Assembly: GCA_000719105.1 (NCBI GenBank)
Contig: JODX01000007.1
Coordinates: forward strand, 124,001 to 188,000
From: Streptomyces sclerotialus
GTDB lineage: Bacteria > Actinomycetota > Actinomycetes > Streptomycetales > Streptomycetaceae
Direction: 5' to 3'
DNA: 64,000 nt
Positions 31,776 through 35,304 of the stretch are shown here, piece by piece. Both the position numbers and the translations under genes were made by a program. The notes under the pieces are model-generated. The model saw nothing but the letters and a program-made list of their open reading frames with translations. It ran no database searches and was not told the DNA's origin. How positions within the stretch are numbered: position 1 is the stretch's first letter; the number at the start of each line of letters is the position of its first letter.

Positions 31776-32645
31776 TCAGACGCGGTCGGCCACGATCAGC
31801 AGATACTGGAAGCTGCCGTTCGCATACGCGGTCAGGAACGTGTCCTCGATGCCCGTGACCAAGTGGTCCGCCTGCTTGCGCAGTTCCCAGTACGGGACGG
31901 CGGCCGCCGTCAGGTCCTGTACGTGGACGGGCACGAGCCGGTTGCGGGCCATGGCGCGGAAGTACTCCGACCGCGGGTGGATGTCGCAGATGTAGTGGGC
32001 GTTGATCAGGGACACCTCGCGGGACGCCCGCCCGTACGTGTCGTCGTAGCAGCCGGTGATGGTGACGTAGCGTCCGCCGCGGCGCAGCAGCCGGGCGTGC
32101 TCCGCGAACAGCAGCTCCAGCTCCACGTACATCGTGGACTCGTTGTTCCAGGACGCCGCGTACCCGCCGGAGGGCAGCCCGGTGTCGAGCATGTTGCGGT
32201 GGTGGTAGCGCACCTTGTCGTCGATGCCGCGCCGGCGCGCCTGCTGGTTGGCGAAATCGGCCTGCTTCCGGGAGATCGTGACCCCGTCGGCGCCGCACCC
32301 GTACCGCAGATGGGCGACCACGCTGCCCCCGCCGCGGCCGCAGCCGGCGTCGAAGACCCGGTCGGCGGGGGAGAGGGGGCCGAGGTGGGAGGCGAGCAGC
32401 TCGGCCTGCGCCTGCTCCAGACGGTGCAGTTCGGCGGTGAGCCGCTCCCGGCGTCTGGCGGGGTCGGCCTCGTCGAGCACGGACCGGTCGGCGTCCCCGA
32501 CACCGTAGTGGTGGTGGTAGAGGTCGTCGATCTTCCCGAGTTCGAGGTTGACCGGGTTCTCCTCGGCGTTCCAGTAGGCCGCGACGCGGCTCTGGTACGT
32601 GGACTGGGACGGCACCGATGCGGTCGCGGTGCCGGTGTCGATCAT
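31776..32645 (-). CDS. Geranyl diphosphate 2-C-methyltransferase
   Basis: 289 residues, a class I SAM methyltransferase (DAGCGRGGGSVVAHLRYGC, SAM loop). Features typical of GPP C-methyltransferase are YQSRVAAYWNAEENPVNLELG, YHHHYGVGD, and the SWNNESTMYVEL and ITGCYDDTYG active-site blocks. It methylates GPP at C2 to give 2-methyl-GPP, the substrate for 2-methylisoborneol formation. It is the last gene of the operon, starting 62 bp after the terpene cyclase. ATG start after an AGGAG-like sequence. Confidence 0.92.
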   Translation of the reverse strand: MIDTGTATASVPSQSTYQSRVAAYWNAEENPVNLELGKIDDLYHHHYGVGDADRSVLDEADPARRRERLTAELHRLEQAQAELLASHLGPLSPADRVFDAGCGRGGGSVVAHLRYGCGADGVTISRKQADFANQQARRRGIDDKVRYHHRNMLDTGLPSGGYAASWNNESTMYVELELLFAEHARLLRRGGRYVTITGCYDDTYGRASREVSLINAHYICDIHPRSEYFRAMARNRLVPVHVQDLTAAAVPYWELRKQADHLVTGIEDTFLTAYANGSFQYLLIVADRV

Positions 32646-32707
32646 GGTCAACGGTGACTCCTCGTGCAGTAGTGGAATCTCAACAGCGGGGGTTGTCGCC
32701 AGGGTTC

Positions 32708-33844
32708 TCACCAGTAGTGGGGCAGGTGGTAGCGGTGGGTGTTGGTGGCGTGCCACTCGTGGTTGCCGGAGACCCAGGCGGCGAGGCCCCGGGCGTAGCG
32801 CTCCACCAGCGGTGAGCCGGCGGACAGGACCGCGGACTCCTCCTCGAACGCCGCCATGATCCGGTTGTGGATCTCGACGGCCTCCAGATAGGCGGCCTTC
32901 AGCCCGCACCGCTCGTTGGCGGCGATGACCCGCGGCAGGTTCAGGTGGGCGGGGTCGGCCAGTTCCTTGGTGAAGGAGTACAGGTCGTTGACGATCGTGG
33001 TGGCGTTGCAGGCCAGGGCGGTGATCCGCTGGATCTCCGGGCGGGAGTACAGGGGCTCGGGCAGTTCGTAGCCGTCCACGGCGTCCACGATGGACAGACA
33101 GGGACGGAAGTTGTTGAACTGCCGCATCACCAGGTACTCCCACACCCGCGGCGCATACCGGGTCTCGGCCCAGGCCGCCTCGGCGAGGTAGCCCAGGTGC
33201 AGCCGGGCGATGTCGTGCACGAACCGGCCGGTCTGGCTCGGGGTCGCGAAGGCGGCGTAGTCCTTCAGCGCCCAGTGGTACGAGCGCAGCGGGCCGTCGG
33301 CCTGTACGCCGTGCCGCCACTCCTCCTCCAGCGCGGGGGTGCCGTGGTACGGGTCGATCGCCGACTGGGCCATGACCAGGCGTCCGCCCAGTCCGCGCGG
33401 CGAGCCGCCCCGGCCCTCCTCCGCCTCGCAGTAGCAGCTGTCGACGACGTTCTCGGCCAGCAGCAGCTTCCCGGCCGTGGTCAGGCGCTCCATGTCGGCC
33501 GCGCCCGGATGCTGGAGCGCGACGGCCCGGCCGAACCGGAACCCGGCGAAGTCCCCCGACCACGCTTCGGGGAACAGGTCCAGCTCACGGGCCCAGGCCT
33601 CCAGCCTGCGGTCGACCTCGGCGGCCTTCTCGGGATCGGCGGGGACGGCGGGCCGGTACAGCAGCCCGGGAACCGCTCCGCCGCGCCGGGCCGGGGAGAG
33701 GCGGGGCGGAGCCGGTGGTCCGGGCAGCCGCCAGGACCGTGGCACCTGGTGCGTGTCACCGAGAGCTTCGGACGTCTCGGACGCCCCGGGTGCTCCGGAC
33801 GGCTCGGACGCTTCGGGTTCTTCGGATGCCGACGGAATGCTCAT
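32708..33844 (-). CDS. 2-Methylisoborneol-synthase-like terpene cyclase
   Basis: 378 residues. Residues 1-50 are disordered and rich in Ser, Glu, Pro, Ala and Gly. The class I terpene synthase domain follows. The NSE motif is complete (N286-DLYSFTKE) and the C-terminal RY is kept (NTHRYHLPHYW). The first metal motif reads VD135-S-CYCE-A. As I recall, the S. coelicolor enzyme has DDCYCED, so its second and last acidic positions are replaced by Ser and Ala here. The enzyme would cyclise 2-methyl-GPP to 2-methylisoborneol or a related C11 terpene such as 2-methylenebornane. The ATG at 33844 overlaps the shell-protein stop (ATGA); an in-frame ATG at 33856 is possible. Confidence 0.9.
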   Translation of the reverse strand: MSIPSASEEPEASEPSGAPGASETSEALGDTHQVPRSWRLPGPPAPPRLSPARRGGAVPGLLYRPAVPADPEKAAEVDRRLEAWARELDLFPEAWSGDFAGFRFGRAVALQHPGAADMERLTTAGKLLLAENVVDSCYCEAEEGRGGSPRGLGGRLVMAQSAIDPYHGTPALEEEWRHGVQADGPLRSYHWALKDYAAFATPSQTGRFVHDIARLHLGYLAEAAWAETRYAPRVWEYLVMRQFNNFRPCLSIVDAVDGYELPEPLYSRPEIQRITALACNATTIVNDLYSFTKELADPAHLNLPRVIAANERCGLKAAYLEAVEIHNRIMAAFEEESAVLSAGSPLVERYARGLAAWVSGNHEWHATNTHRYHLPHYW

Positions 33845-35304
33845 TCCGGCATCCATCCGACCTGGACGTTCTCCAGGACGCCCGCCGCGTCGGGCACCAG
33901 GACGGCCAGGGAGTAGTAGGCGGTCACGAGGTATTTCATGATCGCGGCTTGGTCGATGCCCATGAACCGTACATTCAGACCGGGCTCGTACTCCTCGGGG
34001 ATGCCGGTCTGGTGCAGGCCGACGACTCCCTGGTCCTTCTCGCCGGTGCGCAGCGCGATGATGCTGCTCGTGTGCTGCTCGCTGATCGGAATCTTGCCGC
34101 AGGGGAACACCGGGACACCGCGCCAGGCGGGCACCTCGTGTCCGTCGACGTTCACGGTGCCGGGCACCAGCCCGCGCCGGTTGCACTGCCGGAAGAAGGC
34201 CGCGATCGTCTTCGGGTGTGCCAGGAACAGCCGGGTCTTGCGGCGCATCGTCAGCAGTTCGTCGAGGTCGTCCGGGGTGGGCGGACCGGAGAAGGTGCTG
34301 ATGCGCTGCCCGTGGTCGATGTTGTGGAGCAGCCCGAAGTCGGGGTTGTTGACGAGTTCCCACTCCTGGCGTTCGCGGATCTCCTCGACGGTCAGGCGGA
34401 GTTGCTGCTCCGTCTGGTTCATGGGGTCGTTGAAGAGGTCGGCGACCCGGGTGTGGACGCGCAGCACCGTCTGGGTCAGGGACAGCTCGTACTCGCGCGG
34501 TGCCAGCTCGTAGTCGACGAAGCCGCCGGAGATGACGGGTTCGCCCACGTGCCCGGCCTGCACCGGGACCTCGGCCTCGCCCTTGCGGTTCATGGGCCGG
34601 CTGTGCCGCTCCGCGAAGGCGTCCAGATGGGCGGCGAGGGACGGCACGCGCTCCACGAGGTCCTCGAGGACGTCCCAGGGCAGGGCCAGGACGACTCCCG
34701 GGGTCTCGGCCCGCACCGAGGCGTGCCACCGCGGCGGGTCGGCCCGGCCGACCGCCTCGTCCCCCAGCCCCTCGCCGTCCGTGACGACTCCGAGGACCTC
34801 CTCCTCGCCGTACCTGCCGGTCGTGTAGCGGGTGAACCGGCCGTGGACGACCAGGTACGTCTCGGTGACGGGCTGCCCGGACTCGAAGAGGACCTGGCCG
34901 GCGCGGACGTCGCGGACCCGGAACCGGGAGGAGAGCTCCTTCAGCACCTCCGGGTCGGAGTAGCCGCGCAGGGCCGGCAGTTCGGTGAGCGTCCGGGGGA
35001 TGACCCTGATGCGGTCGGCGCCGTTGTGCTCGAACTGCACGCGGCCCCGGCCGACCCGGAGCTGGAGACGGCGGTTGACCCGGTAGGTGCCGCCCTTGAC
35101 GTCCACCCACGGCAGCATCTTGAGCAGCCATCGCGAGGTGATGGCCTGCATCTGCGGTTCGGACTTGGTGGTGGTGGCGAGCTGGCGCGCCGCCCGGGTG
35201 GCGAGGCTGGTGAACTGCTGTGCGGCGTCGTCGGGTCCGGCGGGTCCGGGAGGCCCCGTGGTCCTGTCGGGGGTGTTCTCCGGCGAGCTGTCCGGGACGG
35301 TCAC
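33841..35304 (-). CDS. Family 2B encapsulin shell protein (EshA-like, cyclic-nucleotide domain)
   Basis: 487 residues. A disordered N-terminal arm (1-30) leads into an HK97-type shell segment (FTSLATRAARQLATTTKSEP). A cyclic-nucleotide-binding domain is inserted at about 111-230 (GQVLFESGQPVTETYLVVHG, GEGLGDEAVGRADPPRWHAS). The rest of the shell fold follows (LSLTQTVLRVHTRVADLFND, NNPDFGLLHNI, FRQCNRRGLVPGTVNVDG, PVFPCGKIPI). Such EshA-like proteins assemble into virus-like capsids that package an enzyme encoded beside them, here the terpene cyclase. GTG start with GGAGG upstream. The phosphate-binding loop departs from the CRP pattern, so nucleotide binding is uncertain. Confidence 0.85.
   Translation of the reverse strand: MTVPDSSPENTPDRTTGPPGPAGPDDAAQQFTSLATRAARQLATTTKSEPQMQAITSRWLLKMLPWVDVKGGTYRVNRRLQLRVGRGRVQFEHNGADRIRVIPRTLTELPALRGYSDPEVLKELSSRFRVRDVRAGQVLFESGQPVTETYLVVHGRFTRYTTGRYGEEEVLGVVTDGEGLGDEAVGRADPPRWHASVRAETPGVVLALPWDVLEDLVERVPSLAAHLDAFAERHSRPMNRKGEAEVPVQAGHVGEPVISGGFVDYELAPREYELSLTQTVLRVHTRVADLFNDPMNQTEQQLRLTVEEIRERQEWELVNNPDFGLLHNIDHGQRISTFSGPPTPDDLDELLTMRRKTRLFLAHPKTIAAFFRQCNRRGLVPGTVNVDGHEVPAWRGVPVFPCGKIPISEQHTSSIIALRTGEKDQGVVGLHQTGIPEEYEPGLNVRFMGIDQAAIMKYLVTAYYSLAVLVPDAAGVLENVQVGWMPE

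What the first reader, a model, noticed from the sequence alone, without database searches (positions are those of the whole stretch)
31776..35304. Encapsulated terpene-cyclase operon: family 2B encapsulin, 2-MIB-synthase-like enzyme and GPP methyltransferase
The EshA-like protein has the family 2B arrangement: an HK97-type shell with a cyclic-nucleotide domain inserted. It is coupled by ATGA to the terpene cyclase, and the methyltransferase follows. The predicted unit is a protein nanocompartment that packages the volatile-forming cyclase, perhaps gated by a nucleotide, while the methyltransferase supplies 2-methyl-GPP from outside or inside.
Basis: partly seen in the sequence, partly recalled or inferred. 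Interest (0 to 1): 0.75.

Follow-up and report, generated by a model that had tools for sequence, protein, structure and literature searches.

The report
Encapsulin operon for odorant terpenes
This is a three-gene Streptomyces operon for a virus-like protein shell, a terpene-forming enzyme and the enzyme that methylates its substrate; the type is already known, but this lineage has replaced the short tag thought to send the enzyme into the shell.

Summary
In detail: a Family 2B encapsulin shell, a 2-MIB-synthase-like cyclase overlapping it as ATGA, and a GPP C2-methyltransferase. NCBIfam has models for all three, and the system type was catalogued in 2021 (PMC8346489, passages), so the encapsulated-cyclase idea is not new. 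The nucleotide gate is not supported: PMC12407261 states that Family 2B insertion domains bind no cyclic nucleotide, and the phosphate-binding Arg position is Trp in 85 of 85 shells of this lineage. What remains is a variant. The window cyclase sits in a clade (119 loci, 104 distinct cores) in which 0 of 104 carry the proposed cargo motif GPxGLGT, against 53 of 55 other members of the same cargo family; instead 104 of 104 carry PGP[P/S/A/H] in a segment predicted disordered. The clade's shells form their own lineage, while the sister cyclase, which keeps GPTGIGT, sits by another shell lineage. The host genome has a second complete operon with the usual motif. A few clade members lack an adjacent shell. 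Product and loading are untested. Verdict: new variant of a known kind.

The parts
33841..35304 (-). Family 2B encapsulin shell protein (EshA-like), 487 aa, GTG start with GGAGG upstream
   Evidence: NF041163 717.4 bits; PF19307 + PF00027; 9bhu E 4.8e-176
34648..34914 (-). inserted cyclic-nucleotide-binding-fold domain (residues 131-219)
   Evidence: PF00027 56.4 bits; the CRP Arg82 position is Trp in 85 of 85 clade shells
33856..34608 (-). HK97-fold shell domain (residues 233-483)
   Evidence: PF19307 445.4 bits; the search of the whole genome places it at C7:157856-158608
32708..33844 (-). 2-MIB-synthase-like class I terpene cyclase, 378 aa, start overlaps shell stop (ATGA)
   Evidence: NF041167 426.3 bits; 4zq8 E 4.1e-193, 3v1x E 9.6e-115; predicted model matches 4zq8 and 4la6/3v1v
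33713..33724 (-). PGPP motif (cyclase residues 41-44) in the disordered N-terminal extension; candidate loading motif of this clade
   Evidence: P41 54/54, G42 54/54, P43 53/54, P44 52/54 of the sequences with a residue there in a 55-sequence alignment; pLDDT below 50 for residues 1-54; PGP[PSAH] in 104 of 104 distinct clade cores
33422..33442 (-). metal-binding Asp-rich motif, here DSCYCEA (canonical 2-MIBS type DDCYCED)
   Evidence: second residue is S 76, N 21, D 5, T 2 among 104 distinct clade cores (five of the N read from the printed strings)
32963..32989 (-). NSE metal-binding motif NDLYSFTKE (residues 286-294)
   Evidence: invariant or nearly so in alignment A1
31776..32651 (-). geranyl diphosphate 2-C-methyltransferase, 291 aa from TTG (289 from ATG)
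   Evidence: NF041943 452.4 bits; 4f84 E 1.5e-106, 3vc1 E 2e-105; residue aligned to S. coelicolor Glu173 is Glu171 (counted)
31712..31751 (-). strong hairpin (18 bp stem) 3' of the methyltransferase, possible end of the transcript
   Evidence: RNA fold of 31690-31785, -59.2 kcal/mol, z -3.24; no T run, so only terminator-like

Best explanation
A complete Family 2B encapsulin operon for a C-methylated monoterpenoid of the 2-methylisoborneol kind. The shell protein assembles into an HK97-type particle; the cyclase, made by translational coupling right after it, is loaded through its disordered N-terminal extension; the methyltransferase makes 2-methyl-GPP, most likely outside, since it has no recognised tag; substrate and product pass the shell pores. 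The inserted domain is a cyclic-nucleotide-binding fold that probably senses no cyclic nucleotide. In this clade the proposed tag GPxGLGT has been replaced by a PGPP tag while the partner shell changed lineage, so loading here probably uses a clade-specific tag-shell pair. Shown: genes, order, families, motif replacement, shell lineage change, second operon in the same genome. Inferred: assembly, loading, tag function, product.
For: Family models over cut-off for all three; solved relatives of each. Three-gene unit conserved while neighbours change. GPxGLGT in 0 of 104 distinct clade cores (0 of 119 loci) against 40 of 42 and 13 of 13 other family members (11 of 13 by the strict pattern); PGP[PSAH] in 104 of 104 against 5 of 55. 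The motif is near-invariant in a segment of pLDDT below 50, as expected of a short linear tag. Clade monophyletic (support 0.871) with L194 as sister (0.994) in a tree of 175 cyclases; L194's shell groups with C-type shells, the clade's shells with another lineage. MT catalytic Glu and HHHYG kept in 12 of 12 clade MTs fetched in the first sample.
Against: Nothing here shows loading or particle formation. The clade lacks the only published tag motif, and its extension is short in most members. The PGPP motif persists in clade loci without an adjacent shell (L018, L027, L045, L061, L240; PGPH in L076), so it may serve the enzyme itself. Loci of the other clades without a same-strand shell nearby (9 of 55, one at a contig edge, one with the shell on the other strand) also keep or mostly keep GPxGLGT, so adjacency is a poor guide either way. 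The tag-and-shell change is a single event. The AlphaFold model of the shell was poor (mean pLDDT 52.7) and tests nothing. Gu et al. 2023 (PMC10520479, passages) found that the N-terminal domain of S. coelicolor 2-MIBS lowers activity and aids solubility, a role without a shell.
Confidence: 0.66

Rival explanations
1. In this clade the cyclase is no longer (or hardly) loaded: shell and cyclase are co-transcribed relics or work separately, and the cyclase acts free in the cytoplasm.
For: The proposed tag is gone in the whole clade. Six clade loci lack an adjacent shell while cyclase and methyltransferase stay intact: L018 (near a contig end), L027, L045, L061, L076 (only a few dozen residues of each shell end recognisable), L240; L205 has its shell in two frames. 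In the genomes of the five named ones other Family 2B shells exist, but not beside this cyclase.
Against: Shell adjacent in 74 of 80 named and 38 of 39 unnamed clade loci, one of them split; a new motif is conserved exactly where the old tag was; the start codon overlaps or nearly overlaps the shell stop.
Confidence: 0.22
2. The unit is encapsulated but makes another C11 terpenoid (2-methylenebornane or other), so that the genome's two operons have different products.
For: Of 179 columns conserved at 90% in both this clade (12) and the canonical 2-MIBS clade (26), 46 differ; the Asp-rich motif is altered; the methyltransferase position aligned to Phe222 is Tyr in 12 of 12 clade MTs against Phe in 26 of 26 canonical ones. 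The own genome has a second, DDHYLD-type cyclase with its own methyltransferase.
Against: In the first 81 genomes this clade and the canonical clade never share a genome (0 against 3.9 expected, hypergeometric P 0.006, kinship ignored), as expected of equivalents; but G111, outside that sample, has both. Core fold and NSE motif are kept.
Confidence: 0.3
3. The shell is a nucleotide-gated container, cAMP or a similar ligand opening or closing it.
For: PF00027 fold is present; these domains sit over the two-fold pores in S. lydicus shells (PMC12407261, passages).
Against: PMC12407261 says the domain has been shown not to bind cyclic nucleotides; Arg82 position is Trp in 85 of 85 clade shells, 21 of 24 canonical and 9 of 9 C-type; Glu72 position is Asp in 85 of 85. 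Another ligand is not excluded.
Confidence: 0.05
4. The EshA-like protein is a regulator of development or ppGpp rather than a compartment shell.
For: Older S. griseus and S. coelicolor work on EshA (titles seen in a reference list, PMC7355545).
Against: Full match to a shell family with solved particles; fixed pairing with cyclase and methyltransferase.
Confidence: 0.03

Closest known systems
S. griseus EshA / Sg-Enc 2-MIB encapsulin (9bhu; Andreas and Giessen, bioRxiv/Nat Commun 2024, not held here, recalled; cited as ref. 35 in PMC12407261)
   Same: Family 2B shell with inserted CNB fold, 2-MIBS-like cyclase, GPP methyltransferase; one shell gene
   Different: shell about 58% identical to that (canonical) shell lineage (57.7% mean to 24 B shells); cyclase about 53% identical to canonical cyclases; tag motif PGPP instead of GPxGLGT; ATGA overlap instead of a gap of tens to hundreds of bases
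Second operon of the same genome (G000 contig 6, L005)
   Same: shell + 2-MIBS-like cyclase + GPP methyltransferase, all over the same family cut-offs
   Different: cyclase about 37% identical, DDHYLD metal motif, GPTGLGTSAAR tag; shell of another lineage
S. lydicus terpene synthase 4zq8
   Same: closest solved cyclase, same clade (L023 is S. lydicus), D(N)CYCEEDEG motif, LPGPP motif
   Different: no product reported in anything I saw; only 320-321 of 374 residues appear in the structure library
S. lydicus two-component xylulose-kinase Family 2B encapsulin (PMC12407261)
   Same: shell fold and CNB insertion
   Different: two shell genes and another cargo class

Membership tests
Family 2B encapsulin shell | HK97-type SrpI-like domain with an inserted PF00027 domain | tested here: met
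Family 2B encapsulin shell | sequence relation to a solved Family 2B particle | tested here: met
   9bhu E 4.8e-176 over residues 31-485
Family 2B encapsulin shell | predicted HK97 fold | tested here: inconclusive
   AlphaFold model poor, mean pLDDT 52.7
Family 2B encapsulin shell | assembles into particles | not testable with these tools
   needs electron microscopy
   Arg82 position Trp, Glu72 position Asp (CRP numbering recalled). Not a defining feature of the family
encapsulin cargo terpene cyclase (NF041167) | model score over cut-off | tested here: met
   426.3 against 400
encapsulin cargo terpene cyclase (2-MIBS-like, PMC8346489) | conserved GPTGLGT-type motif in the disordered N-terminal region (a proposed tag) | tested here: not met
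   0 of 104 distinct clade cores, window included
2-MIB synthase | fold and NSE motif | tested here: met
2-MIB synthase | Asp-rich motif DDCYCED | tested here: not met
   DSCYCEA; first Asp kept, second position S/N/T in 99 of 104 clade cores
2-MIB synthase | product is 2-methylisoborneol | not testable with these tools
   needs GC-MS
GPP C2-methyltransferase (NF041943) | model score over cut-off and catalytic Glu | tested here: met
   452.4 against 400; Glu171 aligned to S. coelicolor Glu173 (role of Glu173 recalled)

The most novel reading that the evidence does not exclude
The clade has re-addressed its cargo: when its cyclase ancestor was joined to a new shell lineage the tag GPxGLGT was replaced by PGPP, so that this cell can run two mutually blind terpene nanocompartments (contig 6: GPTGLGTSAAR; window: PGPP). 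In the usual systems the tag resembles the shell's own N-terminal arm (cargo ..GLGTSAAR, shell ..SLGT[S/A]AARNLATTTK), hinting that cargo is held where shell arms dock, and that this clade left that site.
Probability: 0.28. Interest if true: 0.6.

Novelty: new variant of a known kind. Interest (0 to 1): 0.36.

Why it matters
If the motif swap is a tag swap, it gives natural, orthogonal tag-shell pairs for Family 2B encapsulins, and a way to find what part of the shell reads the tag: compare the two shell lineages and exchange tags. The host strain itself carries both types. Shell-less relatives are natural tests of what the compartment adds to odorant production. For the operon as such nothing is new.

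Tried and rejected
Cyclic-nucleotide gate: rejected on residues and on a published statement. Strict mutual exclusion of this clade and canonical 2-MIBS systems: held in 81 genomes but G111 breaks it, so only a tendency is claimed. Altered Asp-rich motif as a clade hallmark: weakened, since 5 of 104 members keep DD. Shell loss as proof that the shell is unneeded: weakened, since other clades also have loci without an adjacent shell. Link between the nearest non-clade shell lineage (L189) and a degenerate tag: looked promising with L189, but its relatives L229 and L231 have near-usual tags (GPGGPGT, GPSGFGT), so dropped. Covariation between shell arm and tag, locus by locus: looked at by eye, none seen. 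AlphaFold of the shell: too poor to use. Literature for the product of this clade: one search by species names gave no paper that I followed up. In one search the query made from the contig-6 cyclase was in the wrong frame; classes there rest on the window cyclase and were redone. L206 (below the family cut-off, no shell, no motif) was left out of the 42.
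Full report
What is there. The minus strand of 31776-35304 encodes, in order, a shell protein (GTG 35304 to TGA 33841, 487 aa), a terpene cyclase (ATG 33844 to 32708; ATG and the shell stop overlap as ATGA) and a methyltransferase (32651 to 31776). Pfam finds PF00027 at 131-219 and PF19307 at 233-483 of the shell, PF19086 in the cyclase and methyltransferase families in the third protein. NCBIfam, whose models carry curated cut-offs, names them family 2B encapsulin shell (717.4 bits, cut-off 400), family 2 encapsulin cargo protein terpene cyclase (426.3, cut-off 400) and geranyl diphosphate 2-C-methyltransferase (452.4, cut-off 400). 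Best solved relatives are 9bhu for the shell (4.8e-176), 4zq8 then S. coelicolor 2-MIB synthase for the cyclase, and S. lasaliensis- and S. coelicolor-type GPP methyltransferases (4f84, 3vc1; species names recalled). A predicted cyclase model matches 4zq8 and the 2-MIB synthase entries best.

What is known. The 2021 survey (PMC8346489, passages) lists 904 Family 2B operons with terpene cyclases, notes C-methyltransferases with 2-MIBS-like cyclases, and proposes a GPTGLGT motif in the disordered N-terminal region as a loading tag. PMC12407261 (Introduction, part of Results, part of Discussion and passages) describes a two-shell relative and states that the inserted domain has been shown not to bind cyclic nucleotides. 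I recall, but could not see, the 2024 paper that showed 2-MIB synthase inside the S. griseus EshA shell through its N-terminal region. NCBI records already name relatives of the window cyclase as encapsulin cargo (120 best of 1316 listed). So the type is not new.

The unit. In 80 named relatives of the cyclase, the best 80 of 171 confirmed, the methyltransferase follows in 80 and the shell precedes in 74; other neighbours of the window recur in at most 2. The operon thus travels as a three-gene cassette. A strong hairpin follows the methyltransferase. The three genes hold no TTA codon.

Three cyclase kinds. In 81 Streptomyces genomes, 80 have a PF19307 shell and 48 have a cyclase of the cargo family at E 1e-40, at 55 places (own genome included). 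I fetched 53 of these stretches and used the window and L005 for the other two. A tree splits them into the window's clade A (12), canonical DDCYCED clade B (26), a DDHxxD clade C (13, drawn together with the outlier L206), and L192-L194. Six of the 48 genomes have more than one such cyclase. The own genome has two, each with its own shell and methyltransferase, plus a third Family 2B shell beside a polyprenyl transferase.

The tag. A second draw of 220 genomes, which overlaps the first, gave 40 further stretches, chosen by me: the low-scoring and doubtful ones. Counting all: clade A has 119 loci, 104 distinct cores, since the named and unnamed sets overlap in 15. GPxGLGT: 0 of 104 in clade A; 40 of 42 in the first sample of other members (misses: L186, cut by a contig edge, and L189, GRSGLGA) and 11 of 13 in the second by the strict pattern, 13 of 13 by a slightly wider one. 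PGP[PSAH] within 50 residues of the core: 104 of 104 in clade A (exact PGPP 101) against 5 of 55 others. In a 55-sequence clade alignment, P41, G42, P43 and P44 are kept in 54, 54, 53 and 52 of the 54 sequences with a residue there, amid poorly conserved sequence, and residues 1-54 are predicted disordered. The crystal chains of 4zq8, of the same clade, hold 320-321 of 374 residues, which fits a disordered end, though I could not see which residues are missing.

The shell partner. L194 is the sister of clade A (support 0.996 in the first tree, 0.994 in the larger one) and keeps DDCYCEDYGG and GPTGIGTAAAR. Its shell groups with C-type shells, while the 11 clade A shells form a lineage of their own (support 1.0) next to the L189 shell. 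Among the 27 further clade A loci the 26 with a shell all match the clade A shell best. So tag and shell lineage both differ across that branch. It is one event, and which came first is unknown. It is suggestive, not proof, of a changed tag-shell pair.

Against this reading. Clade A loci without an adjacent shell exist: L018 (1.6 kb from a contig end), L027, L045, L061, L076 (a few dozen residues of either shell end remain), L240; L070 stops at a contig edge; L205 has its shell in two frames. Their cyclases and methyltransferases are intact and keep PGPP (PGPH in L076), so the motif could serve the enzyme itself. The genomes of the six named ones hold other Family 2B shells. Nine of 55 members of the other clades also lack a same-strand shell in the stretch fetched, most of them with the usual tag, so a missing neighbour does not prove a free enzyme. 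PMC10520479 (passages) found that the N-terminal domain of S. coelicolor 2-MIB synthase lowers activity and improves solubility.

The nucleotide gate. At the position of CRP Arg82 (alignment by me, numbering recalled) the residue is Trp in 85 of 85 clade A shells, 21 of 24 B and 9 of 9 C; at Glu72 it is Asp in 85 of 85 clade A shells. With the published negative result, a cyclic-nucleotide gate is unlikely; some other ligand is open.

Product. The second residue of the Asp-rich motif is S 76, N 21, D 5, T 2 among the 104 cores; the first Asp and NSE motif are kept. Of 179 columns conserved in both clades A and B, 46 differ. The methyltransferase keeps the catalytic Glu and HHHYG in 12 of 12, but has Tyr at the Phe222 position, as do C and X (11 of 12 and 3 of 3 read), against Phe in 26 of 26 of B (roles recalled). 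Clades A and B share no genome among 81 (expected 3.9, P 0.006 without regard to kinship), which suggests equivalents, but G111 has both. I put 2-MIB as product at about 0.6.

A side observation on the usual tag. The seven residues LGT[S/A]AAR occur both in the cargo tag and in the shell's N-terminal arm. A codon-biased DNA pattern for them has 18 matches in the own genome and 12 chosen others: 6 in shells, 6 in terpene cyclases (4 of these only weakly similar to my references, with the motif mostly at the C-terminus), 5 in a gyrase-B-like protein (label recalled from its sequence) and 1 elsewhere; the reversed pattern has none. The pattern misses other codons, among them both own-genome cases. 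LGTSAAR appears in one paper of the library, the 2021 survey, which gives it for cargo in the passage I saw; the 2024 paper could not be searched.

Verdict. An ordinary member of a published system type in its gene content, and a well-marked variant in its presumed loading tag and shell lineage.

Noticed in passing
G000 contig 6, about 95953-99600 (L005 6451-10094): Second complete shell + 2-MIBS-like cyclase (GPTGLGTSAAR, DDHYLD) + GPP methyltransferase operon in the same genome.
   Followed up: partly
G000 contig 5, 284469 (L004 7254-9867): Third Family 2B shell, beside a cargo-family polyprenyl transferase (NF041169, 484 bits, cut-off 450).
   Followed up: partly
L257, L258, L260, L262-L265, L267-L270, L272: LGT[S/A]AAR is shared by the cyclase tag and the shell N-terminal arm; 12 of 18 pattern matches in 13 genomes fall in these two protein kinds.
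   Followed up: partly
L154, L157: Cyclases with two near-copies of the tag in the N-terminal extension (APTGLGTSAAR and PTGLGTSAAR in L154; APAGPGTSAVR and GPAGLGTSAAR in L157).
   Followed up: no
L076 3452-3738: Remains of a deleted shell gene (about residues 2-46, weak, and 446-482) in front of an intact cyclase and methyltransferase.
   Followed up: partly
L205 3630-5062; L219 2365-3286: Shell genes split between frames or lacking a middle part next to intact cyclases; could be sequencing error.
   Followed up: no
window 28943-30391 and 30455-31672: An MpaB/Lcp-type oxygenase gene (PF09995) beside a protein with two TetR_N domains; not conserved with the operon.
   Followed up: no
P0034: A 389-aa relative of the cyclase listed with both PF19307 and PF19086, perhaps a shell end read into the cyclase.
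   Followed up: no
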